NCBI GenBank assembly: GCA_916610825.1
Contig: OU744449.1
Location: forward strand, 19,251,344-19,315,343
DNA from: Haliclystus octoradiatus
Lineage: Eukaryota; Cnidaria; Staurozoa; Stauromedusae; Haliclystidae
Direction: 5' to 3'
DNA: 64,000 bases
Made by a program: the position numbers and the translations under genes. Shown one piece after another: positions 22,597 through 60,300 of the stretch (position 1 is its first letter; the number at the start of each line of letters is the position of its first letter). The notes beneath the pieces are model-generated. The model did no database searches and was not told where the DNA came from. It saw only the letters and a program-made list of their open reading frames with translations.

Positions 22597-22745
22597 GAAA
22601 ACACAAGAAATGGAACTAAACACAAGAAATGGAACTAAACACAAGAAATGGAACTAAACACAAGAAATGGAACTAAACACAAGAATGGAACTATGGAACT
22701 ACACACGAGAAATGGAAATAAACACAAGAAATGGAACTGAACACA
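22597..22745. repeat. 19-bp tandem repeat
   Basis: About seven units of AAACACAAGAAATGGAACT, the last ones degenerate, in the interior of the LTR element. Confidence 0.9.
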
Positions 22746-22934
22746 AGGAATTGGATTACCCAAAACTGAAGAGACTGAACTAAAAAAGTAAGATTTTAAA
22801 ATACTGAACATAAACTATTGAACATTCCAACATTTTGGAACTTTTAAATATTGAACACTAAACATTCAACTAAGAACATTGAAACACAATGAACACACTA
22901 AGAATACTAAATGAACTAAGAAACACACAAGAAC

Positions 22935-23290
22935 ACACAACAGAGTTTAAAATTGAACACGCAAGAATAAGCAACAACTCATGAAAATACTGAATTCATC
23001 AAACACACAAGAATAAGCAACAACTCAAGAAAATACTGAATTAATCAAGCACACAAGAATAAGCAACAACTCAAGAAAATACTGAATTCATCAAACACAC
23101 AAGAATAAGCAACAACTCAAGAAAATACTGAATTAATCAAGCACACAAGAATAAGCAACAACTCAAGAAAATACTGAATTCATCAAACACACAAGAATAA
23201 GCAACAACTCAAGAAAATACTGAATTAATCAAGCACACAAGAATAAGCAACAACTCAAGAAAATACTGAATTCATCAAACTCACAAGCAA
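22935..23290. repeat. 46-bp tandem repeat with alternating units
   Basis: About seven 46-bp units built on AAGAATAAGCAACAACTCAA. Units alternate between AATTCATCAAACACAC and AATTAATCAAGCACAC endings, making a 92-bp higher-order period. This suggests expansion by unequal exchange of dimers. Confidence 0.9.
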
Positions 23291-25367: not shown

Positions 25368-26119
25368 TAGATGAAGCAGAAAGTTCTCAACAAATTTAAC
25401 ACGAAGGCATAAATATGTTTTCTGAATCAAGTATGCAAAATAAGATATTAAATTATTAATCATCTCAACTTATTTCTCGTAACATTGTATTTGAGAAAAA
25501 AGAAAATGGTCTGACAATATACAGGTGTATTACATTGTTGTAGTTTCAAAAAGGACCGACTTTCACAAAACAGTAATAACAATATCTCAATTAGTGCGAA
25601 ATGATCTCAAAGCATTGTATGCAAAACGTTTGGTGGTATCTATCTAAACATGTATTGTAGCGGGGTATTTATATGTCCCTTTAGCAAAGCGCGATGCGTT
25701 AAATCAGACAGGCTACTTTTGTGTGATCATTTTCATACTGTTGAATGAGTTTCAAAAAGGAAAAAGGAAATAGTCATTCATCCATCCGGTTTCTATTTGA
25801 GTAAACAATGTCTACAATATCATAGATAAGATTGGATATTGAATTTCTATTCTACCAATTTATAAAAATGACCTGTAAAACTTTGTACGTGCTAATCTCA
25901 ATAACCATGTGGAGAAATCCGGAACATTATACATCATTCGAAAGCCCTCTTTCGTGGTTTGAGTATATATATATATATATATTTATATATTTATTTTGGT
26001 ATATTAAATTTTGAAACTTCAACTGAATCCGGTGTAAAATCAAAAAATCTTCTTCGTAAAAATGCTTTCCGTAAAAGATTAGAGCCGTCATTAAAAGAGC
26101 AAAGCCGTGTGGGGCAATG
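25368..26119. other. Non-coding stretch with (TA)n
   Basis: Contains a TA microsatellite at about 25964-25987 and ends with the 11-bp GTGGGGCAATG direct repeat (26109-26119) that borders the giant foldback. No gene was recognised. Confidence 0.45.
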
Positions 26120-26580
26120 GTGGTTTTGGTGAGCGCTGAAGCGCATTCTGCAAATCCGAAATCCTTCTACGCATGTCCAGAAAAAGCTACGTCATCATGA
26201 AATAACCTAATTTGATTGGCTTATCTTGAAAGACAATGGCAGAAGCGTGCGTCAGGAGCAGACAGCGCAAATGCTAACAAAATAATTTCAAGTATCGCGT
26301 CCTTCGACGCTTTGAATATTAACTTGTCCGTAGCTGTTACGGTTCTTTCTGGTTTCTTCTTTTCTCAACCACGTGGACAGACATCAGTTCTACTCTAAAA
26401 GCTTCGATAATCATCAACAAAACACGGCGGTTACATAATATGGAACGTCAAGATGTTAGTGAAGATACATTTAATATGTATCCAGCTCCTGGAGTTTGAA
26501 GAATCACATTTTAATCGTCAATTTACCAATTTCATTCCTTCAACACAAATTCAGGTGTGGTCATTTCGCTTCATGGAATA
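26120..26580 (+). repeat. Foldback left unique terminus
   Basis: Matches the complement of 37395-37899. It is moderately diverged in the outer half and nearly identical in the inner 130 bp (CTCCTGGAGTTTGAAGAATC onward). It carries TACGTCAT and GATTGGC near 26190-26220, so it may hold a promoter. A short frame from 26216 is not conserved in the other arm. Confidence 0.85.
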
Positions 26581-28139
26581 CGTGCGATCTGACAAATTCA
26601 TCGAAAATCAGGTTTAAATCAATCGTTATAATAGAAGAACGTCAGTAAACAGGTAAATACTGTTCTTATTTGTATCTTCATCGAAATCTTAAAATTATTA
26701 GATATTTTTAAAATTTTATTTTGACCCATTCTTACTGATTCAGGTTTTGACCTCTACGCGGCAAACTTCACGGAATGCGATCTGACAAATTCATCGAAAA
26801 TCATATTTAAATCAATCGTTATAACAGAAAAACGTCAGTAAACAGGTAAATAATGTTCTTATTTGTATCTTCATCGAAATCTTAAAGTTATTAGATTTTT
26901 TTAAAATTTTATATTGACCCATTCTTACTGATTCAGGTTTTGACCTCTACGCGGCAAACTTCACGGAATGCGATCTGACAAATTCATCGAAAATCATATT
27001 TAAATCAATCGTTATAATAGAAGAACGTCAGTAAACAGGTAAATAATGTTCTTATTTGTATCTTCATCGAAATCTTAAAGTTATTAGATTTTTAAAATTT
27101 TATGTTGACCCATTCTTACTGATTCAGGTTTTGACCTCTACGCGGCAAACTTCACGGAATGCGATCTGACAAATTCATCGAAAATCATATTTAAATCAAT
27201 CGTTATAACAGAAAAACGTCAGTAAACAGGTAAATAATGTTCTTATTTGTATCTTCATCGAAATCTTAAAGTTATTAGATTTTTTTAAAATTTTATTTTG
27301 ACCCATTCTTACTGATTCAGGTTTTGACCTCTACGCGGCAAACTTCACGGAATGCGATCTGACAAATTCATCGAAAATCATATTTAAATCAATCGTTATA
27401 ACAGAAGAACGTCAGTAAACAGGTAAATAATGTTCTTATTTGTATCTTCATCGAAATCTTAAAGTTATTAGATTTTTTTAAATTTTATATTGACCAATTC
27501 TTACTGATTCAGGTTTTGACCTCTACGCGGCAAACTTCACGGAATGCGATCTGACAAATTCATCGAAAATCATATTTAAATCAATCGTTATAATAGAAGA
27601 ACGTCAGTAAACAGGTAAATAATGTTCTTATTTGTATCTTCATCGAAATCTTAAAGTTATTAGATTTTTTTTAAATTTTATGTTGACCCATTCTTACTGA
27701 TCCAGGTTTTGACCTCTACGCGGCAAACTTCACGGAATGCGATCTGACAAATTCATCGAAAATCATATTTAAGTCAATCGTTATAACAGAAGAACGTCAG
27801 TAAACAGGTAAATAATGTTCTTATTTGTATCTTCATCGAAATCTTAAAGTTATTAGATTTTTTTTAAATTTTATATTGACCAATTCTTACTGATTCAGGT
27901 TTTGACCTCTACGCGGCAAACTTCACGGAATGCGATCTGACAAATTCATCGAAAATCATATTTAAATCAATCGTTATAATAGAAGAACGTCAGTAAACAG
28001 GTAAATACTATTCTTATTTGTATCTTCATCGAAATCTTAAAGTTATTAGATTTTGTTAAAATTTTATTTTGACCCATTCTTACTGATTCAGGTTTTGACC
28101 TCTACGCAGCAAAATTCACGGAATGCGATCTGAAAAAGT
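26581..28139 (+). repeat. Satellite A array, left arm, about 8 units of ~192 bp
   Basis: Units restart at GCGATCTGACAAATTCATCG near 26585, 26776, 26969, 27161, 27353, 27545, 27739, 27931 and 28123, giving a period of 191-194 bp. Neighbouring units differ at a few positions, mainly in poly-T length and ATAATAG/ATAACAG variants. The last unit decays into the linker. Confidence 0.95.
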
Positions 28140-28461
28140 CAACAGAAACCATGTTCAAATCAATCGTTATAACAGATGATTGTACAGTATTTGTACTAAT
28201 AATTACGTTTATATGGCGATTAGTTTTCATTTTAATCCAATGCGCTTTACAATTACATAACTTTTCGATGTAATAAATAGATAACTTATATTTGTTGTCT
28301 GTGTTTTCTATATTAATTTAGATCCAGTTTAGCCGTCGTTGTGTTGACTGGGTCACAATGTCGTTTTGGTGAAGCCACCTATACGACAAATTCAATAAAT
28401 CAGTTTACTAATATGTATGTTCATGTTTATAATAAAAACTGAAACTCTTTTAATGCAGCCA
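28140..28461 (+). repeat. Foldback left linker
   Basis: A single-copy segment between the two satellites, mirrored at 33190-33480. Contains GTTGTGTTGACTGGGTCACA and ends where satellite B starts. Confidence 0.88.
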
Positions 28462-31311
28462 TGTGATAATTGTTTCGCATTATAGACTTCATGCAAAAGG
28501 GTGTATTTCCCATTCTGACTTGCATGTGTATCGATTTCATACGAAATAAAAGGTACCCATGGATAATTATTTGATACTTGTTAGGAAACTACACGAAGTT
28601 CTACATAATAAATTGTGAAATGGTATTCTCAATTAGAAAACTGAAATTCTTGTCATGCAGCTGAGTGATAATTGTTTCGCATTATATAGACTTCAGGCAA
28701 AAGGGTGTATTTCATACTCTGACTTGCATGTGTATCGATTTTATACGAAATAAAAGGTACCCATGGATAATTATTTAATATTTGTTAGGAAACTACACTA
28801 AGTTCTATATAATAAATTGTGAAATGGTATTCTCATTTAGAAAACTGAAATTCTTCTCATGCAGCCGAGTGATAATTGTTTCGCATTATAGACTTCAGGC
28901 AAAAGGGTGTATTTCCCGCTCTGACTTGCATGTGTATCGATTTTATACGAAATAAAAGGTACCCATGGATAATTATTTGATATTTGTTAGGAAACTACAC
29001 TAAGTTCTATATAATAAATTGTGAAATGGTATTCTCATTTAGAAAACTGAAATTCTTCTCATGCAGCCGAGTGATAATTGTTTCGCATTATAGACTTCAG
29101 ACAAAAGGGTGTATTTCATACTCTGACTTGCATGTGTATCGATTTTATACGAAATAAAAGGTACCCATGGATAATTATTTGATATTTGTTAGGAAACTAC
29201 ACGAAGTTCTATATAATAAATTGTGAAATGGTATTCTCATTTAGAAAACTGAAATTCTTCTAATGCAGCTGAGTGATAATTGTTTCGCATTATATAGACT
29301 TCAGGCAAAAGGGTGTATTTCATACTCTGACTTGCATGTGTATCGATTTTATACGAAATAAAAGGTACCCATGGATAATTATTTGATATTTGTTAGGAAA
29401 CTACACTAAGTTCTATATAATAAATTGTGAAATGGTATTCTCAATTAGAAAACTGAAATTCTTCTCATGCAGCCGAGTGATAAATGTTTCGCATTATAGA
29501 CTTCAGGCAAACCGAGTGATAATTATTGTTTCGCATTATAGACTTCAGACAAAAGGGTGTATTTCATACTCTGACTTGCATGTGTATCGATTTTAATAAG
29601 AAATAAAAGGTACCGATGGATAATTATTTGATATTTGTTAGGAAACTACACTAAGTTCTATATATTAAATTGTGAAATGGTATTCTCATTTAGAAAACTG
29701 AAATTCTTCTCATGCAGCCGAGTGATAATTGTTTCGCATTATAGACTTCAGACAAAAGGGTGTATTTCCCGCTCTGACTTGCATGTGTATCGATTTTATA
29801 CGAAATAAAAGGTACCCATGGATAATTATTTGATATTTGTTAGGAAACTACACTAAGTTCTATATAATAAATTGTGAAATGGTATTCTCATTTAGAAAAC
29901 TGAAATTCTTCTAATGCAGCTGAGTGATAAATGTTTCGCATTATAGACTTCAGGCAAAAGGGTGTATTTCCCATTCTGAATTGCATGTGTATCGATTTTA
30001 TACGAAGCAAAAGGTACCCATGGATAATTATTTGATATTTGTTAGGAAACTACACTAAGTTCTATTTAATAAATTGTGAAATGGTATTCTCAATTAGAAA
30101 ACTGAAATTCTTCTCATGCAGCCGAGTGATAAATGTTTCGCATTATAGACTTCAAGCAAACCGAGTGATAATTATTGTTTCGCATTATAGACTTCAGGCA
30201 AAAGGGTGTATTTCCCACTCTGACTTGCATGTGTATCGATTTTATACGAAATAAAAGGTACCCATGGATAATTATTTGATATTTGTTAGGAAACTACACT
30301 AAGTTCTTTATAATAAATTGTGAAATGGTATTCTCATTTAGAAAACTGAAATTCTTCTCATGCAGCCGAGTGATAATTGTTTCGCATTATAGACTTCAGA
30401 CAAAAGGGTGTATTTCATACTCTTACTTGCATGTGTATCGATTTTAATAAGAAATAAAAGGTACCCATGGATAATTATTTGATATTTGTTAGGAAACTAC
30501 ACTAAGTTCTACATAATAAATTGTGAAATGGTATTCTCATTTAGAAAACTGAAATTCTTCTCATGCAGCCGAGTGATAATTGTTTAGCATTATAGACTTC
30601 AGACAAAAGGGTGTATTTCATACTCTTACTTGCATGTGTATCGATTTTAATAAGAAATAAAAGGTACCCATGGATAATTATTTGATATTTGTTAGGAAAC
30701 TACACTAAGTTCTATATAATAAATTGTGAAATGGTATTCTCATTTAGAAAACTGAAATTCTTCTCATGCAGCCGAGTGATAATTGTTTCGCATTATAGAC
30801 TTCAGACAAAAGGGTGTATTTCCCGCTCTGACTTGCATGTGTATCGATTTTATACGAAATAAAAGGTACCCATGGATAATTATTTGATATTTGTTAGGAA
30901 ACTACACTAAGTTCTATATAATAAATTGTGAAATGGTATTCTCATTTAGAAAACTGAAATTCTTCTAATGCAGCTGAGTGATAAATGTTTCGCATTATAG
31001 ACTTCAGGCAAAAGGGTGTATTTCCCATTCTGACTTGCATGTGTATCGATTTTATACGAAGTAAAAGGTACCCATGGATAATTATTTGATATTTGTTAGG
31101 AAACTACACTAAGTTCTATATAATAAATTGTGAAATGGTATTCTCAATTAGAAAACTGAAATTCTTCTCATGCAGCCGAGTGATAAATGTTTCGCATTAT
31201 AGACTTCAGGCAAAAGGGTGTATTTCATACTCTGACTTGCATGTGTATCGATTTTATACGAAATAAAAGGTACCCATGGATAATTATTTGATATTTGTTA
31301 GGAAACTACAA
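28462..31311 (+). repeat. Satellite B array, left arm, 14 units of ~203 bp
   Basis: Units are marked by GGTACCCATGGATAATTA near 28555, 28758, 28960, 29162, 29366, 29609, 29814, 30015, 30259, 30462, 30665, 30867, 31068 and 31271. Twelve intervals are 201-204 bp in length and two are about 244 bp, because a ~40-bp internal piece is duplicated. The two long units are about 650 bp apart, showing a higher-order repeat. Open frames inside the array are chance frames repeated with it. Confidence 0.95.
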
Positions 31312-31519
31312 CACATGGTATATCATACAATAGCGCTAAATGCCTCAGTACTTAACATTACAAATAGCCTGCAGCATGACATCCACGATACACCATACAC
31401 ATATTAAATGACTTCACATTACTATACTACCAATAGAACTAGATGTCTCAATACATAACATTTCAAAAAGCCCTAAGCACAACATACGCAATGTAACACA
31501 TCACTATCACACATTATAG
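31312..31519. other. Central loop of the foldback element
   Basis: About 208 bp of single-copy sequence between the inverted satellite B arrays. It has no coding frame and a run of short diverged phrases (CATTAC, CAATAC, ACACAT). Confidence 0.85.
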
Positions 31520-33189
31520 GTCAGAATGGGAAATACACCCTTTTGCATGAAGTCTATAACGTGAAACATTTATCACTCGGCTGCATAAGAAGAATATCAG
31601 TTTTATAATTGAGAATACCATTTCACAATTTATTATATAGAACTTAGTGTATTTTCCTAACAAATATCAAATAATTATCCATGGGTACCTTTTATTTCGT
31701 ATAAAATCGATACACATGCAAGTCAGAGTATGAAATACACCCTTTTGTCTGAAGTCTATAATGCGAAACATTTATCACTCAGCTTCATTAGAAGAATTTC
31801 AGTTTTCTAAATGAGAATACCATTTCACAATTTATTATATAGAACTTAGTGTAGTTTCCTAACAAATATCAAATAATTATCCATGGGTACCTTTTATTTC
31901 GTATAAAATTGATACACATGCAAGTCAGAGTATGAAATACACCCTTTTGCCTGAAGTCTATATAATGCGAAACATTTATCACTCAGCTTCATTAGAAGAA
32001 TTTCAGTTTTCTAAATGAGAATACCATTTCACAATTTATTATATAGAACTTAGTGTAGTTTCCTAACAAATATCAAATAATTATCCATCGGTACCTTTTA
32101 TTTCGTATAAAATTGATACACATGCAAGTCAGAGTATGAAATACACCCTTTTGTCTGAAGTCTATAATGCGAAACATTTATCACTCAGCTTCATTAGAAG
32201 AATTTCAGTTTTCTAAATGAGAATACCATTTCACAATTTATTATATAGAACTTACTGTAGTTTCCTAACAAATATCAAATAATTATCCATGGGTACCTTT
32301 TATTTCGTATAAAATCGATACACATGCAAGTCAGAATGGGAAATACACCCTTTTGCCTGAAGTCTATAATGCGAAACATTTATCACTCAGCTGCATTAGA
32401 AGAATTTCAGTTTTCTAAATGAGAATACCATTTCACAATTTATTATATAGAACTTAGTGTAGTTTCCTAACAAATATCAAATAATTATCCATGGGTACCT
32501 TTTATTTCGTATAAAATCGATACACATGCAAGTCAGAGCGGGAAATACACCCTTTTGCCTGAAGTCTATAATGCGAAACAATTATCACTCGGCTGCATGA
32601 GAAGAATTTCAGTTTTCTAAATGAGAATACCATTTCACAATTTATTATATAGAACTTAGTGTAGTTTCCTAACAAATATCAAATAATTATCCATGGGTAC
32701 CTTTTATTTCGTATAAAATCGATACACATGCAAGTCAGAGCGGGAAATACACCCTTTTGCCTGAAGTCTACAATGCGAAACAATTATCACTCGGCTGCAT
32801 GAGAAGAATTTCAGTTTTCTAAATGAGAATACCATTTCACAATTTATTATATAGAACTTAGTGTAGTTTCCTAACAAATATCAAATAATTATCCATGGGT
32901 ACCTTTTATTTCGTATAAAATCGATACACATGCAAGTCAGAGTATGAAATACACCCTTTTGCCTGAAGTCTATATAATGCGAAACAATTATCACTCAGCT
33001 GCATGACAAGAATTTCAGTTTTCTAATTGAGAATACCATTTCACAATTTATTATGTAGAACTTCGTGTAGTTTCCTAACAAATATCAAATAATTATCCAT
33101 GGGTACCTTTTATTTCGTATGAAATCGATACACATGCAAGTCAGAAAGGGTGCATGAAGTCTATAATGCGAAACAATTATCACAAGGCT
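31520..33189 (-). repeat. Satellite B array, right arm, 8 units of ~203 bp
   Basis: Inverted relative to the left array. TCCATGGGTACC-type landmarks lie near 31679, 31880, 32083, 32287, 32488, 32691, 32893 and 33097. It has six units fewer than the left arm and no 244-bp variant. Confidence 0.95.
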
Positions 33190-33480
33190 GCATTAAAAGA
33201 GTTTCAGTTTTATTATAAACATGAACATACATATTAGTAAACTGATTTATTGAATTTGTCGTATAGGTGGCTTCACCAAAACGACATTGTGACCCAGTCA
33301 ACACAACGACGGCTAAACTGGATCCAAATTAATATAGAAAACACAGACAACAAATATAAGTTATCTATTTATTACATCGAAAAGTTATGTAATTGTAAAG
33401 CGCATTGGATTAAAATGAAAACTAATCGCCATATAATCGTAATTATTAGTACAAATACTGTACAATCATCTGTTATAACG
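33190..33480 (-). repeat. Foldback right linker
   Basis: Inverted, nearly identical copy of 28140-28461. The 97-residue open frame from 33250 runs through this linker and is not supported as a gene. Confidence 0.88.
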
Positions 33481-35052
33481 ATTGATTTGAACATGGTTTC
33501 TGTTGACTTTTTCAGATCGCATTCCGTGAATTTTGCCGCGTAGAGGTCAAAACCTGAATCAGTAAGAATTGGTCAAAATAAAATTTTAAAAATATCTAAT
33601 AACTTTAAGATTTCGATGAAGATACAAATAAGAATAGTATTTACCTGTTTACTGACGTTCTTCTATTATAACGATTGATTTAAATATGATTTTGGATGAA
33701 TTTGTCAGATCGCATTCCGTGAAGTTTGCCGCGTAGAGGTCAAAACCTGAATCAGTAAGAATGGGTCAACATAAAATTTTAAAAATATCTAATAACTTTA
33801 AGATTTCGATGAAGATACAAATAAGAATAGTATTTACCTGTTTACTGACGTTCTTCTATTATAACGATTGATTTAAATATGATTTTCGATGAATTTGTCA
33901 GATCGCATTCCGTGAAGTTTGCCGCGTAGAGGTCAAAACCTGAATCAGTAAGAATGGGTCAACATAAAATTTTAAAAATATCTAATAACTTTAAGATTTC
34001 GATGAAGATACAAATAAGAATAGTATTTACCTGTTTACTGACGTTCTTCTATTATAACGATTGATTTAAATATGATTTTCGATGAATTTGTCAGATCGCA
34101 TTCCGTGAAGTTTGCCGCGTAGAGGTCAAAACCTGAATCAGTAAGAATGGGTCAACATAAAATTTTAAAAAAATCTAATAACTTTAAGATTTCGATGAAG
34201 ATACAAATAAGAACATTATTTACCTGTTTACTGACGTTCTTCTATTATAACGATTGATTTAAATATGATTTTCGATGAATTTGTCAGATCGCATTCCGTG
34301 AAGTTTGCCGCGTAGAGGTCAAAACCTGAATCAGTAAGAATTGGTCAATATAAAATTTAAAAAAAATCTAATAACTTTAAGATTTCGATGAAGATACAAA
34401 TAAGAACATTATTTACCTGTTTACTGACGTTCTTCTGTTATAACGATTGACTTAAATATGATTTTCGATGAATTTGTCAGATCGCATTCCGTGAAGTTTG
34501 CCGCGTAGAGGTCAAAACCTGAATCAGTAAGAATGGGTCAACATAGAATTTTAAAAAAATCTAATAACTTTAAGATTTCGATGAAGATACAAATAAGAAC
34601 ATTATTTACCTGTTTACTGACGTTTTTCTGTTATAACGATTGATTTAAATATGATTTTCGATGAATTTGTCAGATCGCATTCCGTGAAGTTTGCTGCGTA
34701 GAGGTCAAAACCTGAATCAGTAAGAATGGGTCAATATAAAATTTAAAAAAAATCTAATAACTTTAAGATTTCGATGAAGATACAAATAAGAACAGTATTT
34801 ACCTGTTTACTGACGTTCTTCTATTATAACGATTGATTTAAATATGATTTTCGATGAATTTGTCAGATCGCATTCCGTGAAGTTTGCCGCGTAGAGGTCA
34901 AAACCTGAATCAGTAAGAATTGGTCAAAATAAAATTTTAAAAAAATCTAATAACTTTAAGATTTCGATGAAGATACAAATAAGAATAGTATTTACCTGTT
35001 TACTGACGTTCTTCTATTATAACGATTGATTTAAATATGATTTTCGATGAAT

Positions 35053-36814
35053 AGGGCTCTTTCACGCCTACGTCACACATTTTTCGCGAAAAGCATTGTG
35101 GGATACCTCAACGTACATTGCATTTTATTGCGTTGTCGAATTTGTTGAGCCGCGGCTGAATTTTATCTCACAACATCATTTATTTTAGCTGTTTTACTTG
35201 CTGCTATCAGATTCACTATGGATCTTGACCATCCTATGATTGTTCTAGATGGAGTAAAGGTGCCTGGTGCTGTTTTACCTCATATTCCTTCAAATTGTTG
35301 ATTTGTTCAAGTAAAACGTTGGCTTGAAAAATGTCATGGTGAAAACAACTGGATTGAAATCTTTTCTGTTGTGTCGAAGGGTCAAAGGCATGTTTATCTG
35401 TTGCAAAAGCAGTTGACCCAAAAATTGATAGTGGATATTTAGTATGGATTTAAATATATTTCCCTTTCAACTTCAGCATTATCTTGTGATAGTTTTAGTG
35501 TTGGTCTGTTGCAAATACCAACAACAGACTGGCGTGAATTTCTGTCAAGAGACTTGGCTTCTTGCTATTCTTGCTTTAATTATGGTCATATTTATCATTA
35601 CATTGTGGAGTCATCGTCAGAAAATGTGTTTTATCAATATAACAACAGTGAAGAAGAAGAAGATGTGTGTGAGGATCCATATACTACATGTTACCAGCCA
35701 AACCCTTGAAGAAAGGTAGGCATACAGCATACATTTTGTAGCACGTCGTTTTGTTGAAACATTTATGATATTGTTATATCGAACTAGCAAATTACTTTTG
35801 AGGGCTTATGTTCAACATAAATTCCATGGAAAAAGAATTTTCGTCAAAGGTGAATATTGTTTTAAGTAAGGCAAGTGGATCGGTGTTCATCCTCTTGTAT
35901 TGCAAATACGCAGATGTTGTTTAGGCTAAATCAGAACTACGTAGTAACGTAGGCTACCTATCCTATTTATCATCAGTGTTTATCCACTCTTGTCATCCCC
36001 ATTAGGGCATTCCGGGGCTATTTTCATGTGTATTATTCTCAGTTAGTGTTATTTAGTGTTTCAAATTATCAATTTTCAGGAGAGATCAACTATGTAGCCT
36101 CAAGATGTCACTATGGTGTATTTCAGATTATTATGTGGTTACGATGATTGCTATTTACTTGGGTCTGTTTATAATTGATTTACAATATATAACTATTTAT
36201 TAAGAGATTATCGACTGTATTTACTGGTTATATATTTCATCATTATTAATTGAAATGTATTATGTTTAAAAGTTGTCATTTGATAGCGACGAGAATATCG
36301 ACTATAAGCCGACCGAATGATATGTTGCTAATACTCATTTGTAGTTAAAATACTATTTATAAAATAATTGAAAGGAAATTCTACGTGTCTTCTTGGTAGT
36401 TTTGAATATGTGTGTTCATGTGTATTACTTGCTACAAGTCCTTATTTTATTTCTAGTAAAACTGGTATACATTTTTAAATTTAGTTGTTGTTATTGTTTT
36501 GTTGTTTTCTACCAATTCACACTTTTTGCCAAGATTTGGGAAGCGAATACAAAACGTTCATACGGCTTATTTCTACGGATTTCAGGAATCTGATTTACAG
36601 GTACCCCAACAGTAATGCTTCGTGGTACCTTTCGTTTTTGGTTTATCACGTTCTGTGGATTGCATATCGAGTAAATTAGTTTTTAACTTGGGCAATAAAC
36701 ATCAACGAACGCGGTCAAAACGCAGCTAACTCAGAAATGATATCGAAGTGTTGTACGTTGTGCTATCCCATAAGGCTTTGGGCGAATCTATTTATAAGTC
36801 AGTGAAAGAGCCCT
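35053..36814 (+). mobile_element. ISL2EU-like TIR element nested in satellite A
   Basis: Inverted ends AGGGCTCTTTCAC are flanked by AT (35051-35052 and 36815-36816). Neighbouring satellite units give the empty site GATGAATTTGTCAG with a single AT, so the duplication is AT and not TA. The 1762-bp element carries a damaged ORF near its left end and no transposase. Confidence 0.88.
35217..35709 (+). pseudogene. Remnant of the accessory ORF of an ISL2EU-like transposon
   Basis: Starts ATGGATCTTGACC at 35217 with a short segment (LDGVKVPGAVLPH) that stops at about 35300. It then gives VKRWLEKCHG in another frame, and later WREFLSRDLASCYS and FNYGHIYHYIVES (frame from 35509) before an acidic tail and stop at 35709. 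The order recalls the N-terminal part of the SWIM/YqaJ-nuclease-type protein that accompanies the transposase in ISL2EU elements; this is from memory of that family. The nuclease part is absent. At least two frame breaks make it non-functional. Confidence 0.55.
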
Positions 36815-37394
36815 ATTTGTCAGATCGCATTCCGTGAAGTTTGCCGCGTAGAGGTCAAAACCTGAATCAGTAAGAATTGGTCAATATAAAATTTTAAAAA
36901 AATCTAATAACTTTAAGATTTCGATGAAGATACAAATAAGAACATTATTTACCTGTTTACTGACGTTCTTCTGTTATAACGATTGACTTAAATATGATTT
37001 TCGATGAATTTGTCAGATCGCATTCCGTGAAGTTTGCCGCGTAGAGGTCAAAACCTGAATCAGTAAGAATTGGTCAAAATAAAATTTTAAAAATATCTAA
37101 TAACTTTAAGATTTCGATGAAGATACAAATAAGAACATTATTTACCTGTTTACTGACGTTCTTCTGTTATAACGATTGACTTAAATATGATTTTCGATGA
37201 ATTTGTCAGATCGCATTCCGTGAAGTTTGCCGCGTAGAGGTCAAAACCTGAATCAGTAAGAATGGGTCAACATAAAATTTTAAAAAAATCTAATAACTTT
37301 AAGATTTCGATGAAGATACAAATAAGAACATTATTTACCTGTTTACTGACGTTTTTCTGTTATAACGATTGATTTAAATATGATTTTCGATGAA

Positions 37395-37899
37395 TTTGCC
37401 AGATCTCATGTAGCCTATTCCGTGAAGTGAAATGACCACACCTGAATTCATGTCGAAGGAATGAAATTGGTAAATTGACGATTAAAATGTGATTCTTCAA
37501 ACTCCAGGAGTTGGATACATATTAAATGTATCTTCACTCACATCGTGACCTTCCATATTATGTAACAGCAGTATTTTTGTGGATGGTTATCCAAGATTTC
37601 CAAGCAGGAATTGACCTCCATGCCTGTGGTTGAGAAAACAGCGAGAAATGATCAGGATGACCGTAACGGCTGCGGACGAGGGTAGCAGCAAGACGTTTCT
37701 GCTCACGATGATGTGCGATGATGGTTGATTTTCTTCACATGGTTCTTCAAGAGCATTGATACTAGTTGTCAAAGTTTGTCTCAGACGCACGCTTTGCCAA
37801 GCGTCATTCCATTGTTTTGAGAAATCAGCCAATCAAATTACTTTTTCTGAGCATGCGTAGTAGAATTTCGGATTTGCAGAATGCGATTCAGCGATGACC
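37395..37899 (-). repeat. Foldback right unique terminus
   Basis: Inverted partner of 26120-26580. The outer half is more diverged than the inner half. An 81-residue minus-strand frame (37587-37832) has no counterpart of the same frame in the left arm, so it is not called as a gene. Confidence 0.85.
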
Positions 37900-37958
37900 G
37901 TGGGGCAATGAACTCTGAATATGATCAAATGTTTTGAAATCTTGAACAAAGCTAAAAA

Positions 37959-51300: not shown

Positions 51301-54300
51301 TATTTCACGTGATATTCTAGGTATATTCTGCTTGTTTTCAGCGCAAATCTAAAATCTGTGTAGTAGTATAGTCCAATTGAAAAACTCAAACAATCATACA
51401 GACACTTTTACTATCAGATAATTATTGGAGATAGTCTATGAAATATCTACCATGATATTCTAAACTAATTAGAGTCAAAAATATTTTCAAACGTGCATCG
51501 GAACTAGATCCAGACTCTTATCGTTAAAAGTCAGATAGATATGAAAAGGGCCTGTAACTAGTTCCGGTGCACATTTGAAAAAGTTTTTTGACTATAGTTA
51601 GTTCAGAATGTCATGGTGAATAATTCTAGACTATTTCTAATAACTATGTGATAGTAAAAGCGTTTTACTGATTGAACATCTATATAGTCAATGATATACA
51701 GCAGAGCTTTGAATAATATGTGAAATGACGATTGTCAAATTTTCTATGGGATTTAAGTACTACACAAATTGTAGATTTGCTGCTTTCAGCAACAAACTAA
51801 TTTTGTGACCAAATTTCCAAAATGTTTGAATCTAAAACTCTATAAAATAGTCTTGTACATAAAATCCTTAAAGTTTAATATCGCAACTGATACAGAGATT
51901 ACAAACTGCATGATCACTCGTTTTTCACAATGTTTGGGACGTCTATGTCTGCTACCTATGTAGTTGGGTGAATCTGATTCAAAGGTGATAGATAGAAACA
52001 CTGAAGTGAAAACACTCGAACGAATAAATTGAGAAAGTGGAGATGGAAGTAAATAGTAATTCATTGATACTCACAGCAACGTGCCAACCAACTGACGTAG
52101 CAGTAATCATGACGAATTTTATCATTTTGAATAAGTAGAAATAACTAAAGATCAATAATAGATATACATTATAGATTTTAACAGAAAGACAATATATTGC
52201 ATATTGGTAATCAATTTCATTTAATGAGTGACAGTGGGTATTGGCCAGAAAATAAAAGGGCAGTTCAATTATCTATTCGATGGTGAATTCATCTATACGT
52301 CGTGCCCGAGGCATTACATCATTGCTCAAAGCGAAAGAAATGACTCTTCTAGAATGACAAAAGTGGTTTAGCGCCTAAGGAAGATTAGCTCAGATGGCAG
52401 AGCAACCGAAATTCAGATCGGATCATATCTGATCGACTGCGTTCAAATCTCCCGAAGGTCAACTCAGCCTTGACCTTATCTAAAACATCCATCTTAGTAT
52501 CATCTAAGGATGGCAGATGGAATGGTCCAGATAGAATTGCATTGTGAGTAGCTGCGGTGGATCGTTACGCATTGACAATCGAGACTTATCTGCCATGAAA
52601 TCTGTTGAAATTGATATGCAGTGTCGCGGCTGAGGTCAGTACAAGAGTGCCTTCGGTAGGATGACACCGTCTAAATTACTTACTTCATTTAGTGCTTAAT
52701 TATTCATCATGTGCGTTACCGGGAAAGGGTGGCACGATCTGAATAACAGCAGTACTACACTAACCTATATATGATACATGATAAACTCTACATTCATTAA
52801 ATGGGAAACTGCTTCTCAAGTTTTCATAAACAAATACAGTGAGCAGTTTGTGTGACTTATTCATCAAAAGTATTAAATTTAATTTTCTTTGACATCATTA
52901 ATTTGCCCATGAAGAAACGATATAAGGTTACATGAAAGAAATTGGCTTCCACTTAATTTTCCCATTCTTTAAAGGCCAACCATAGGTTTTTCACTGTAGC
53001 TGATAGGCTAGATTCACAGCTATCACTTGAAAGGAAACTTGAATATGCATTCAAAGATTGACTAAAGGTTTAATTGTTTACATACTTCTTCAGCTTCCTT
53101 GTAGTTACCAATTGATGCTTTTGCTTGGGCAAAATCAAAATTAAATGAATCATCATTGTAAAAGTAATTCTAAACAAATCATAATCAAATAAACATCTGT
53201 TATTAAAAACGATCCAAGATAATCGAATTAGAAGAAACACTGTATAAGATATTTGATTTGATTTAATTTATTCATCATATAAAATACAACAGGCAAATAC
53301 AGGGAATTATATTCATAATTAGTACAACCAACATGCAAATAAAACTGCCAATGATATAGTGGGTAATGGAGATTGAAATTTCTATTCGCATAAAAATTTA
53401 TTTAAACGGAATGATATCTTACTCAAATGTTACTGCCTTCGGCGTTCCCAATGTTCAGACTGCGGAAATGGTAATGAACAATGTCATGGTAACTCTGTAT
53501 TTATGTCAATTTCGAGGATTGATTTATAGCAAAAATAAACGTTTATGTCTCCTTTGAAATCTCATGGATTCCACTCAAGCTAGATATTGTTTTAGTGAAG
53601 ATATGTATATTGCTTCTTTAGGTGCGTTGTGAATGTTGATGTAAAATTCCCGGTAAAATTAAGAAGAAAAAGTCCAGGCATGAGAGTCAAGTTCAGCATA
53701 AAACTTAGATGAACTTTCTTTGTTTGTGGGCTGACAAGAACGAGGAACTCTCTCGTGCCCGATAATACTATAGTCGTTTGGATTATCAAATGTAGTGTTT
53801 GACAACAAACCTTAATTGAGTTCAGATAGATGAGAACATCATCAAATTGTTTCAAGAGAAAGAAACAAGATGCCATACATTGTCGACCATGGATTGTATC
53901 TACAAACAAATAAAGTAAACAAATCAAACAATCCCCTTTTGAAATTGATTCGGGAACAATCAACAAACAGCTACAAATAAAGTGAAGTTCATAAAACTCG
54001 TAAACAGATGATGGAAAGGTCACAAACAACCTAATTGTTCAAACTACTCAAATCATTGAACTGCTCACAAAAATTCACCGTTAGAAAAGTGCTAAACTTC
54101 TAAAAAAAAGCTACTCCTGCAAAGCTAATGAAAACTTGAGACGATTAAGCATTCCCATATTTACAAATTATTTGATTTAGAGTTCTTGAACTCATGAGCC
54201 ATTTGATTTAGAGTTATCGAACTCGTGAACTATTTGATTGAGCGTTTTTGAACGTATAAACTATTTGATTCAGCGTTCTTGAACGTATAAACTATTTGAT

Positions 54301-57300
54301 TCAGCGTTCTTGAACGTATAAACTATTTGATTTGGCATTCTTGAGCTTATGAGCTATTTGATTTAGAGTTCTTGAACGTATGAACTATTTGATTTGGCAT
54401 TCTTGAACTTATCAACTAATTGATTTAGCGTTTTTGAGCTTTAAGCAAACACAAAACCATAATATGAGAACAGTGAAATAGCTCAATCAAGTAACAAGTT
54501 TAATTCTCTTTACATTTGGGGTGCATTGGGATGGCAAATGATTATTGTGTAATCTATAATCAATCACGTAGCCTCATTAATCGTCAATAACATGTGGCCA
54601 AAAGCTGTAAAATTATGTATTGATATTGTAAAACGCTGTCAGAATTGTGATTTTGTCTTCAAAGTATCAATAGCTGTGACCAACTTTTGAAAACTCGATA
54701 AAATGGATAAACAAACTTTTATCTCTAAATATTCGACAATATCACTAAATGTCGTTTATTCGAGGCTTTGGTCATATCACCGACACAATTGTAGCATGCG
54801 TTCTTATTTTACACAGTCACAATCAACACAGAAAGAAGAAAAGGAGAAATGCAAACTAGACAGTGGTATTGAATTCTTACCACATTCACTTGCAGACCCG
54901 CCAACGAGTTGAAAATACTGCTGAGCAATTTTAAGATGTTCTCTCTGTAAGAAATATGAATGAGTAAATCCTAATGCCATCTATTCACAAATGAAGTATA
55001 TCTCGGAATACTCCTACGGTTCGATAAAGATGCTCCAAAAGTTATTAAGTTGTTCAAAGCTTTATGCATTACGCTTCACACTAAATCAGAGCAACTTTTA
55101 TCCCTCTCAAGAGGCATATATGATCAAATTTGTTTTTATGAATTTCCATGTGGTGTGCATAGTCACAAAGCATAGTCATACCCCTGCGATACACAGTTCA
55201 GGAGTTCATGAACAGTTCATTAACCTTTACGGACAGTCCATGGACAGTTCATGAAAATTTGGGGCCATTTAACATTCACAAAATGCTCATGAACTCCTGA
55301 ATTGTTTTTTGCAGGGGCGAGAGAAAATTCATAAGAAAATTGATAATTTTCTGATTTACTGATCTAGGATCCCAGAATCCCCATATTTTTCCGACCCTGT
55401 GCATGTGCTTGTCTATTTGAGGAATGTGTTATTTTGAACTAACAACAAGATGAAATTACAATTGATAATAGGGGAAAATACATGTGCTGTGCACTGACGA
55501 GGTAATCTAGCCCTGGTTTCTCTTGCATGTGATGCAGGCAATTTATTACTGATTATAATACTCTAATACTATATTATAGGTGAATGATATGATTAAAAAT
55601 AGAATTCTTTATGAAATATAAATGCATATGTTTTCTTATCAAATTTACGTTTCTTTTGTGTCAGCCGAAAAAGTGGTTTACATTAGCCTGGATGATTCAA
55701 GCAAACCAATCGACACACAGCTTTTCAAATAATGCATCATGCTATTAACAAAAAAGTTTGTTGTTCGAAAAAGGTTATTGTCCATATTGCAGCATAACAG
55801 ACAAAATTGAACAATGGATTGGATATGAATGAAAAGACTCACTGATTCTGTTTCTTGTCCTACAGAGGCATTTACTACACCTTTGAGAATATATTCATTT
55901 GGAGTACTTGGTTCCATCTCTTTTATAAATTTATATGCTTCATTTATATCATCTAAAGAAGAGAAGATATCATTTTGGAGTAATTATTATTGATGAGAAG
56001 GTAGAGACATAGAATAAACTTGTCATAAATAGTTCAAGAACAATCTATGGAGCTCATGGACAACTTCTGAACAATTTATCAGCGGGCCATTTAATAGGTT
56101 CATAAGCAATGTATTATCTGCCAATGAAGTCTCTATGAGATGTTGATGAACCTGTGCTATCCACATTCATGAATTTAAATTATCATCGATGAAGAATAGT
56201 TCATGAAATCATGAATGTTGAATTTTTGGAGACTTTTTACTTTTATACTTTTTTGCTACTTCCCCAGCGAAAAACAGTTACGGAACAGTTCATGAAAATT
56301 GGGGCCATTTAACGTGCATGAACAGTTCATGAACTCCTGAACTGTTTATCCCTGCTTCTTATGAAATAGAACTGAATATATAGTACAAGAACAGTTTTAC
56401 AAGACTTGACAGGACAATTGATATTGCTAAATTGCTATCACAGGCCTTCAAGAAATCCATCTAATTTAGGATCAGTCTTTTTACTAACCTTGTTTCAAAT
56501 AGTAAATGACCTAAATGCAAAGGAAAATAGAAAACATCATATAAGCAAGCATAGCAATTAAACCACTTCAATTTGCTAAATAAACAATTATTAAAATAAA
56601 AATATCTATAGTCTTCTCATGTAGGTTTGCTATTGAAACCATAGGGTCTGTGAACCGACCCCTGCAAAAAAAGTTCATGAATTGTCCGTGAAAAGTTTGT
56701 CAATCTAGGTTGAACATACAGTTGATGAACTGGTTCATGAACTTTTCACAAAAAGTTCATGAACTCAAGTTTTGATTGACAGTTCATGAACCTTTCCTAA
56801 AGTCCATGAACTGGTTCATGGGGTGTCTGAAAATAGTTGATCAAATTAGGCATTCAATGAGAGTTCATGAACTTGACAAACGTTCATCAACAAAAGTTCA
56901 TGAACTGGAAAAGTTTAACAATTCCTGAACCTATTCATAAAAGTTTATGAACTCGTTCATGAACTTAGTTCAGGAACTGAGAGATGACAAAAATTATTGA
57001 AAAGTTCATGAACTGACTTCCTGAACTTATGTGCCATTTCACGTTCATGGGACTGTTCATGAACTAGTTCATGAATAGTTCATGGAATTGTTCATGAACT
57101 AGTTTCATGAATAGTTCATGGGATTGTTTACGAAGTTTCGCAGGGGGATGTGTGATTTTCTGTCCAGCGAAAATAGAATCTGAATAAATTTGGTATATTG
57201 CTACTGTCACATAACATCACAAAACATAGCCATCAGACGCCATAATGAAATTAATGATAATAAGATGTAATGCATAAATTTCATCCACAACACAGTGGAC

Positions 57301-60300
57301 CTTGTTGAGCGAAAAATTAGATGTTGCTTCCAAGACCCTATGGTTTCGGAAATAATTCGGATCGGAACTGGTGAACAGGTTATTTTCCCTGCAAAAAATG
57401 TTCATGAGTTCATGATAGGGAAATTGCCCAAAAGTTCATGAATTGTTCATGAACTTTCAGGCAGTTTCACATTCATGAACCAGTCCATGAACCAGCTCAT
57501 GAAATGTTCTTGAACCCTTTGTGACTGTTCATGAACTGTTCATGAACCCAAAGAAAGATGTTCATGAACTGTTCATGAACTCGTTAATTTTTTTCACAGG
57601 CCATTTACCCTGATTCTTCTACTACAATGTATATGTGTTCCATGTGGCTTAAACAATGAGTATATAGGAGGCAAAGAATTATATCCAGGGAAGCATTGAG
57701 TGAAAAAGTAGAATTTATCTTACTAAGTTTAACTTTGCTTCTGGTAAAACATCAACCAAAGGGGGTAATACTTGCAAAGCACCTTCACCACTTCTAAATA
57801 CAACCTAAAAGAAAACAAATTGAGTGTGATATATTCTGTTGAAATGAGATCAAAGTAATCTTGGATTATACAAATTCCAGGGTACTTGAAATTTAGCATT
57901 ACAAGAATCATAAGATGCTCCTGAGAATATAATCCATGAATAATTAGCAGTCTAATTTTCATGAACTGTGAACTGTTACGGTTCATGAAGTATTTATAAA
58001 GTTTGTGAGATTCATGAATAGTACAAGAACATCAAGAACAGTTTATGAACTCAGTAATCTTTTATGCAAGGATGAAAGTGAATGTGAACACATCAGTGTA
58101 TTCCTCTGCAACGCAATTTGAAACTGTTGTTAGCCTCCTGAACTGTACATGAACACCTTATAAATGGTTCATGAACTAGTTCATCAATGTAAAATGGCCT
58201 GCTTTTCATAGACGTTTCCATGGACTGCTCATCCCCTGCGAAACAAGTTCATGAAAGTTCATAAAAGTTCATGAACGTTCATGAACGTTCATGAACTTTG
58301 ATGAACAGTTCATGAAATGTAAGGAAGAGTTCAAACTGAAGCATCAATAGCCAATGTGTGAAGAAGTAAATTTTTAACTATTTGATGACACATCTCACAA
58401 ACAGGAAGTGCTAAGTGGGTGTCTAAGTGAGAAGCTAATAAATTTATAAATAAAAATGTAATGTAGACGGTGTCGCCCTACCGAAGGCACCCGTACCACT
58501 CCTCTATTTCTAGATGAGTGGCTTTTTTCGCTGAGAGCAATGATTTCAAACGCTCTTTGTTGATCTCAGCCGCGACACTGCAGATCAATTTCAACAGATT
58601 TCATGGCAGATTCCTGCGATTCCTGAGAATTGTGCAATTCCTTCTGGATCATTCCATCCGCCATCCTCAGATGGTACTCATTTGATATTTCAGATAAAGT
58701 CAAGACTGAGTTGACCTTAGGGGGATTTGAACTACGGTCGATCAGATATGATTCGATCTGAAGTTCGGTTGCTCTGCCATCTGAGCTAATCCTCCTAATG
58801 AATTCATGCTTAGCTCATGCTGTCATCTCATGCTGATAGTAAGGTGATAAGCTGTCTATACTGTCTATATGTAGACTAGGTGCTTGGACCTGGGTACCAG
58901 CTATTGTTATTCAAAAGAAAACTGGCTTATGAAGTCAGTTAGTAATTTATATCATTCCTTACTTTTGCTGCTTGTTTACTTGAGCCAGAGAAAGAATCTC
59001 ACAAACTTGAAAAATGAGTTTAATTCAGTAATATGAAGAATTTAGCTGGTGGATAGATATTCTACAAAGTTTTACATAAAAATATATGGCTTCAACATGA
59101 TTGAAAAGATGATTTCCAGGTGAAACTAAAGTTTGACTTTGGAATAGCCTACTAATTAGATGAAACTGTGGTTTTCAAAACTCAAACAGAATTTACTACA
59201 GTAGGCCTACTCCTCACGTGGTTGTTTGGTTGTTCATATCTGGTGTTGGTGTATACATTGAATATCATGCAAAGAATATGAGGCCAGATTTTATATTTCC
59301 TTTTAATTATACACAAAAAGATAAATCAGAGATGCAAAGCTTTGCAAGACTTAATTTACGCCCACAACAAAACCACATAAAGAGTTTTAATGCATAATTA
59401 TTCGTGTTGCTTGCTGTTTTCAATTCAAACACTGGACATGTCATAACTTCAAGCTCTTGTACATGTAAAATCCAAAGGTTGATAATAATATTTTAAAATT
59501 ATCATTATTATTAAAAGCGCTTCCTAAAGTAGGTGCAAAATATCATTACAGGATAAAGTAAGTTTTGAAATGAATCATGGCAAGAAAAGAATATCCCAAC
59601 AGAGAACCTTTTTTTCACATCCAAACGAGAAAACCTAAAAATAACGAAAACCCCTCATTTTCATTATGTTTGGTCAAACAGTCAGTGATACGTTTTTGTG
59701 AAAATTTCATAATTGAGGTCAATAAAAACACAATATTGAGGATAATAATAAGGATGATATTGATATCGGTCAGAGAAACTGTTTTTAGATTTGACATATT
59801 CAGTGTCTGAAGATGTTAATTGCAGCTTAGTTGACTATTTAAATAAAGGTAAGATTTATGACCTTTTAAAACTCTTGAAAATGCAAGAGTGACCACTATT
59901 GACCGCCATAAGGCCGCTATATAGAATCGATTCCTACAAAGGTTTGAATGTAATAAAATTCTGCAAATTTCAACCAAGATAGTGTTTCTTTGTTGTGCAA
60001 TGAGTCATCTTGCTTTACAAATCACAATTATCGAATGTTCAAATGTATTTAACAATCAATATCAGACCATTCTTTCCACTGCAATATGCATCCTGACAAC
60101 ATTATCGAGCTTTGTAAAATATCATGAAGGTTTTCTGCGATCTGATTGGTCGAAAGAGCGTGTATAAAATCCTAAGGTAAAACCTCGCTCCAAAAACCGG
60201 GAAAAACCGCTAGCTTCTAAAGTTTGATCTGTGATAAAAAGCAGAAATTATAACTTTACGATAACAATCCAATAAATATCTCAATTATGGCAACGATTTA

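What the first reader, a model, noticed from the sequence alone, without database searches (positions are those of the whole stretch)
26120..37899. Giant 11.8-kb foldback element with mirrored arms of two satellites
Seen directly: the order unique end, satellite A (~192 bp), linker, satellite B (~203 bp), 208-bp loop, then the exact reverse. The boundaries coincide with an 11-bp direct repeat GTGGGGCAATG. Known: FB-type elements of Drosophila have long inverted arms made of tandem repeats, and Mutator-group elements make 9-11-bp duplications. Inference: this is a non-autonomous foldback transposon that carries and spreads two satellites together, a plausible source of the genome's satellite DNA. 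I know of no described family with this layout.
Basis: partly seen in the sequence, partly recalled or inferred. Interest (0 to 1): 0.88.

Follow-up and report, generated by a model that had tools for sequence, protein, structure and literature searches.

The report
Mobile hairpin element with satellite arms
The mirrored 11.8-kb stretch is one of five similar copies of a jumping DNA element that carries two tandem satellites in each inverted arm, and the same genome also holds elements with a Merlin-type transposase gene built on the same mirrored, satellite-armed plan.

Summary
The window holds a low-copy foldback transposon, 26128-37899: terminus, satellite A (193 bp), linker, satellite B (202 bp), loop, then the reverse order. 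Four more copies with the same plan lie elsewhere in the genome (one has lost its loop and part of one arm), plus older relics. All ten ends of the five copies begin GGT. All five are bordered by a direct repeat of 9 bp or more: three abut the termini exactly, two stand 8-15 bp off. So it moves and is not an assembly artefact. It is not an exact mirror: unit numbers differ between arms, the two termini are distinct, and a separate 1,762-bp transposon sits in the right arm. Matches to both satellites were found only inside this family, so it is not shown to feed genomic satellite DNA. Its transposase source was not found. Nine-bp duplications fit Mutator or Merlin; GG ends are reported for all Merlin families. 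In this genome Merlin transposase frames lie between inverted arrays of a 203-bp satellite, beside a decayed inverted copy of the gene. I favour a non-autonomous Merlin-type foldback (0.55), but no sequence homology links the two, so membership is unproven.

The parts
26109..26119 (+). left copy of the direct repeat GTGGGGCAATG (target-site duplication; a 9-bp duplication would be its first nine bases)
26120..26127 (.). eight extra bases between the left repeat and the terminus, not present at the abutting ends of three other copies
26128..26582 (+). left terminus LT (455 bp, begins GGTGAGCGCTGAAGCG); 1-5 differences among four copies
26583..28176 (+). satellite A, left arm, about 8.3 units of 193 bp
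28177..28434 (+). linker, left; its first bases are a partial satellite A unit, and about 80 bp of it (134-212) resemble an old dispersed repeat
28435..31310 (+). satellite B, left arm, about 14.1 units of 202 bp
31311..31529 (+). loop (last 10 bases overlap satellite B); related to part of an older dispersed repeat; inverted in the C10 copy
31520..33211 (-). satellite B, right arm, about 8.4 units
33211..33468 (-). linker, right (99.2% to the left one)
33469..35052 (-). satellite A, right arm, first part
35053..36814 (+). later insertion of another transposon (ends AGGGCTCTTTCAC inverted, AT at both junctions); not part of the foldback family
36815..37409 (-). satellite A, right arm, remainder
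37410..37899 (-). right terminus RT (490 bp, begins GGTCATCGCTGAATCG on the minus strand); 2-6 substitutions among five copies
37900..37910 (+). right copy of the direct repeat, abutting RT

Best explanation
A non-autonomous foldback DNA transposon. A transposase made elsewhere recognises the GG-ending termini, cuts the whole element out with its satellite arms and inserts it with a 9-bp duplication (inferred from termini and duplications). The arms are inherited as ordered arrays; unit number then changes copy by copy, and recombination between arms can flip or delete the centre (shown as pattern, mechanism inferred). The most likely transposase is of the Merlin (IS1595-like) superfamily, because in this same genome Merlin elements have the same plan: inverted arrays of a ~203-bp satellite around the transposase gene, with a decayed inverted copy of that gene, as if a whole element had been duplicated head to head. 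The window's family would be a relative that lost the gene and kept arms and termini.
For: Five copies with different flanks and arm lengths (4,984-11,772 bp), ten termini all GGT, 9-bp abutting repeats in three, an 11-bp and a 9-bp repeat standing off in two. Each copy has one LT and one RT type terminus. Unit order is kept between copies: same-rank units are closer than in 1,000 of 1,000 shuffles for A and for B. The loop is inverted in C10 against three others; C7 lost loop, right linker and right B. Merlin: GG ends and 8-9-bp duplications (PMC8101967, passages). Five Merlin-domain matches in this genome; two fetched, both with a 315-317-codon open frame hitting PF12762 between inverted 203-bp arrays and an inverted half 78-79% alike over 705-711 bases, with tblastn E 1e-18 and 6e-11.
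Against: No sequence homology was found between the window family and the Merlin elements: of 18 comparisons the best two reach 10 of 200 shuffles each, and tblastn with the Merlin protein finds nothing in the five copies. The genome also holds 85 matches to the MULE domain, and animal foldbacks in print are mostly put in Mutator (PMC4079207). No element with these termini and a transposase was found. Mirror ranks agree within a copy for B (0 of 1,000 shuffles) but not for A (632 of 1,000).
Confidence: 0.55

Rival explanations
1. A non-autonomous foldback mobilised by a Mutator-like (MULE/Phantom) transposase, as for Tm1 or, from recall, FB with NOF.
For: 9-bp duplications. 85 MULE-domain matches in this genome. 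Tm1 has composite foldback ends, mostly 9-bp duplications and short extra motifs outside a GGA (PMC3169594, abstract and passages); Tetris, with 220-bp units and 8-10-bp duplications, was assigned to Mutator by its authors. Ten of 12 long-TIR MULE families in Aedes have subterminal tandem repeats (PMC5225508, passages).
Against: No MULE with these termini. The one MULE group whose 5' end I read (two copies, 886-aa frame) begins TCGCCG and shows no similarity to LT or RT beyond chance; the other groups were not read. The repeats in the Aedes and Tm1 MULE ends are 9-15 bp, not about 200 bp.
Confidence: 0.3
2. A foldback mobilised by another superfamily, or by a lineage now absent from the genome.
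For: No autonomous partner found by termini; foldback plans arise in unrelated superfamilies (Galileo is a P-type element, PMC3573991, passages).
Against: Galileo has 7-bp duplications in its paper; the duplications here are 9 bp.
Confidence: 0.13
3. Assembly artefact or a plain inverted duplication of ordinary satellite DNA, not a transposon.
For: Long near-identical arms are a known assembly risk; unit numbers here rest on the assembly alone.
Against: Five copies with different flanks, different unit numbers and direct repeats at their borders; neither satellite was found outside the family.
Confidence: 0.02

Closest known systems
Tetris, Drosophila virilis (PMC4079207; abstract, section 10 and first part of section 16 seen)
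   Same: Non-autonomous foldback, outer unique domain then ~220-bp tandem units then inner domain in each arm, variable unit number, no coding capacity, few complete copies, 8-9 bp duplications in the complete copies, no autonomous partner found.
   Different: One satellite per arm instead of two; TIRs up to 1,735 bp against several kb here; its units also form separate satellite arrays, not seen here.
Tm1, Meloidogyne (PMC3169594; abstract and passages seen)
   Same: Composite, variable-length inverted ends with tandem repeats, 9-bp duplications, non-identical outer motifs at the two ends.
   Different: 13-15-bp units, elements of about 1-2.6 kb, a Phantom-type MULE transposase.
Merlin superfamily (PMC8101967; passages seen)
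   Same: 5'-GG ends, 8-9 bp duplications, internal tandem repeats in several families (52, 163 bp), one with an oppositely oriented repeat block.
   Different: A foldback form with long inverted satellite arms was not described in the passages I saw; no transposase in the window's family.
Galileo, Drosophila (PMC3573991; passages seen)
   Same: Long internally repetitive TIRs with ~210-bp tandem units of variable number; copies without transposase.
   Different: P superfamily, 7-bp duplications.
Drosophila FB elements and sea-urchin TU elements (recalled; named in PMC4079207)
   Same: Long inverted arms made of tandem repeats.
   Different: From recall, much shorter repeat units; not compared by sequence here.
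Rehavkus (PMC6446971; passages seen)
   Same: 9-bp duplication, minisatellite inside the element.
   Different: PHD-finger transposase, minisatellite before the 3' TIR only.

Membership tests
Foldback-type transposon (structural class) | long inverted arms largely made of tandem repeats, with little between them | tested here: met
Foldback-type transposon (structural class) | several dispersed copies with target-site duplications | tested here: met
   five copies; exact abutting 9-bp repeats in three, 9-11 bp standing off in two
Merlin superfamily | termini begin 5'-GG | tested here: met
   ten of ten ends of the five copies; feature from PMC8101967
Merlin superfamily | 8- or 9-bp target-site duplication | tested here: met
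   9 bp; also met by Mutator
Merlin superfamily | DDE_Tnp_IS1595 transposase in the family | tested here: not met
   no Merlin protein match in the five copies; the family is non-autonomous. Merlin transposases exist elsewhere in the genome
Merlin superfamily | termini shared with an autonomous Merlin element | tested here: inconclusive
   no LT/RT-like end near any of the five Merlin-domain places; the Merlin elements' own ends were not read
Mutator superfamily (MULE) | 9-11-bp (8-11) target-site duplication | tested here: met
   9 bp
Mutator superfamily (MULE) | MULE transposase sharing the termini | tested here: inconclusive
   85 MULE-domain matches; one group's 5' end read and unlike; none within reach of the 13 terminal-pattern places checked by eye except C5:28422170, about 18 kb from the C5b copy
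P superfamily (Galileo type) | 7-8-bp duplication | tested here: not met
   9 bp; 7 bp for Galileo, 8 bp recalled

The most novel reading that the evidence does not exclude
Merlin transposons in this genome have become whole-element palindromes: an ancestral Merlin with tandem-repeat ends was duplicated head to head, one transposase copy stays open while its inverted twin decays, and the satellite arms spread with the element; the window's family is a second, gene-less lineage of the same design with two unrelated satellites per arm. This would make Merlin a superfamily with foldback elements and give a case where the origin of the foldback shape (inverted duplication of a coding element) is still readable.
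Probability: 0.45. Interest if true: 0.75.

Novelty: new variant of a known kind. Interest (0 to 1): 0.6.

Why it matters
How foldback transposons arise and how satellites start are open questions. Here the arms of five copies can be compared unit by unit, and in the same genome an apparently autonomous satellite-armed element still shows a decayed mirror copy of its own transposase gene. That makes the inverted-duplication origin of foldbacks testable, and it offers transposition as a way for ordered satellite arrays to spread inside one element family without leaving it.

Tried and rejected
Autonomous partner by termini: pattern of the first 24 bases with up to 3 mismatches gives 13 places, all this family; the reversed control gives 1. 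LT and RT as DNA queries find only this family and small old fragments.

Loop as remnant of the autonomous element: rejected. The loop resembles an older dispersed repeat; 4 of 28 matches are in the family, and in the 7 of 13 fetched loci that I compared, the shared stretch reaches well past the loop, up to about 580 bp. None of the 13 loci has the family's other parts in the family's order; one (L025) has 73-bp tandem arms in inverted order but no GG ends.

Homology of the satellites to each other or to the 203-bp Merlin satellite: none convincing. The similar unit lengths (202 and 203 bp) may be chance.

Within-copy homogenisation: rejected as dominant. Mean unit distances within and between copies are alike (A 0.025-0.026 against 0.027-0.028; B 0.044 against 0.046-0.047). 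Full-length units only were used (66 A, 69 B; partial units dropped).

In one search the C7 left terminus was left out because it has an internal deletion.
Full report
What is there. The window is C5:19251344-19315343 of a 262-Mb assembly in 33 contigs. Species not named; flanking frames looked animal to me by eye, not tested. At 26128-37899 lies: terminus LT, satellite A (193 bp, 8.3 units), linker, satellite B (202 bp, 14.1 units), loop, satellite B inverted (8.4), linker inverted, satellite A inverted (11.3), terminus RT. Satellites A and B show no similarity to each other. No open frame over 100 aa lies in this copy (the longest is 100 aa); the other copies were not scanned for open frames. 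A 1,762-bp transposon of another family, with 13-bp inverted ends, is nested in the right arm.

It is a family. LT, RT, A, B and linker searches find four more copies with the same order: C5:28439829-28448901, C10:5792516-5798889, C8:2486248-2493794 and C7:25932150-25937133, of 9,073, 6,374, 7,547 and 4,984 bp, plus half-relics at C6, C4 and C14 and small LT-like fragments at C1 and C7. Every one of the five has one LT and one RT. LT differs by 1-5 of 455 bases among four copies, RT by 2-6 substitutions of 490 among five, the linker by 0-5 of 258 among nine, the loop by 2-4 of 219 among four. Spread was therefore recent relative to the divergence of LT from RT; I have no clock.

It moved. All ten ends begin GGT. 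The flanks carry exact abutting 9-bp repeats in C5b (GGAGAAGAT), C10 (ATACTAAAT) and C7 (ATTCCAGCC). In the window copy the repeat is 11 bp, abuts RT and stands 8 bp off LT (10 bp if the duplication is 9 bp). In C8 a shared 9-mer stands 15 bp off RT and 8 bp off LT; such a 9-mer in two 25-base flanks is expected about 0.001 times (my arithmetic). The extra bases may be donor flank carried along by imprecise cutting (inference).

How the arms behave. Mean unit distances are almost the same within and between copies, but units of the same rank in different copies are closer than in any of 1,000 rank shuffles, for A and for B. So ordered arrays were inherited through transposition, then changed in number. 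Within a copy, left and right units of the same rank agree for B (0 of 1,000 shuffles) and not for A (632 of 1,000). The loop is inverted relative to LT in C10 and not in the three others that have it; C7 lacks loop, right linker and right B. Exchange between arms explains both (inference).

Not a satellite source so far. All 87 matches to A and all 91 to B lie in copies or relics of the family. The tool gives lower bounds and skips very common words. The loop and about 80 bp of the linker resemble older dispersed repeats, so the centre was patched from other sequence.

Which transposase. Paper passages give Merlin 5'-GG ends and 8-9-bp duplications (PMC8101967) and Mutator 8-11 bp (PMC6446971, PMC5225508, passages). 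The genome has 85 MULE-domain matches and 5 Merlin-domain matches. I fetched two of the five Merlin places. Both have an open frame of 317 or 315 codons that hits PF12762 at 3e-15 and 7e-17. Both lie between inverted arms of a 203-bp tandem repeat, 92-96% alike over about 785 bp and running off both ends of the 3.8-kb pieces. Downstream of the frame lies an inverted half, 78-79% alike to the transposase half over 705-711 bases (30 shuffles all lower); the Merlin protein matches it at E 1e-18 and 6e-11, and the whole-genome protein search lists the same places with stops (C7:9547957 minus, C10:16599859 minus). So these elements are palindromes with one open and one decayed transposase copy.

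That satellite is widespread: 410 matches, 294 first-look candidates of which 39 were scored, list cut short. In the printed part I count 12 places: 9 have a plus array followed by a minus array, one (C15) has the reverse order, two show one strand only. One of the nine, C5:17761446-17765749, holds a decayed transposase piece between its arrays. At C2:38523108-38527549 the 80 bases outside the outermost listed units are again satellite and identical on both sides, so that copy's end was not reached.

Link to the window family. Shown: same genome, same plan, similar unit length, GG ends and 9-bp duplications in the window family. Not shown: any sequence homology (18 comparisons, the best two at 10 of 200 shuffles each), shared termini, or the duplication length of the Merlin elements. 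I therefore put the Merlin reading at 0.55 and Mutator at 0.30.

Known relatives. Tetris (PMC4079207; abstract, section 10, first part of section 16) is the closest layout: outer unique domain, ~220-bp units, inner domain, 8-9-bp duplications, few copies, no autonomous partner. Tm1 (PMC3169594; abstract and passages) is a Mutator/foldback with 9-bp duplications. Galileo (PMC3573991; passages) has ~210-bp units but 7-bp duplications. Several Merlin families carry internal tandem repeats, one with an inverted repeat block (PMC8101967). A search for Merlin with foldback, transposon and inverted repeats gave one review, seen as a listing only; searches listed no foldback Merlin in the titles and abstract starts shown (15 of 61 papers were listed). 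The library is open-licence only, so this is weak evidence of absence.

Verdict. A real, recently mobile foldback family with two satellites per arm: a new variant of a known kind. The more surprising thing is outside the window: satellite-armed, palindromic Merlin elements.

Noticed in passing
L038:1-3801 (C10:16597300-16601100) and L039:1-3801 (C7:9545300-9549100): Merlin transposase frames between inverted 203-bp satellite arrays, with a decayed inverted copy of the transposase gene.
   Followed up: partly
C6:6448448-6456740 (genome coordinates): Twelve Merlin-protein match rows in 8.3 kb; several cover residues 1-106 and follow each other every 370-400 bp, as if a transposase fragment had become a tandem repeat.
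   Followed up: no
L016:2758-5637 (C4:19070757-19073636): About 1 kb from a relic of the window family: an old 203-bp Merlin-type satellite array (about 81%) directly joined to a 119-bp tandem array of 14.6 units.
   Followed up: partly
L025:827-5923 (C5:10081326-10086422): Inverted arms of a 73-bp tandem repeat about 4.4 kb apart, a possible third foldback family.
   Followed up: partly
window 35053-36814: 1,762-bp transposon with 13-bp inverted ends AGGGCTCTTTCAC and AT at both junctions; 349 first-look candidates, 40 scored, 96-100% identical: a young, abundant family.
   Followed up: partly
window 54169-62957: Many short arrays of units around the palindrome GTTCATGAAC, with periods of 10-36 bp.
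   Followed up: no
window 22599-23287: Two neighbouring minisatellites of 19 and 46 bp.
   Followed up: no
C15:44482-49375 (genome coordinates): 203-bp satellite arrays in minus-then-plus order, the reverse of the nine paired arrays counted elsewhere in the printed list.
   Followed up: no
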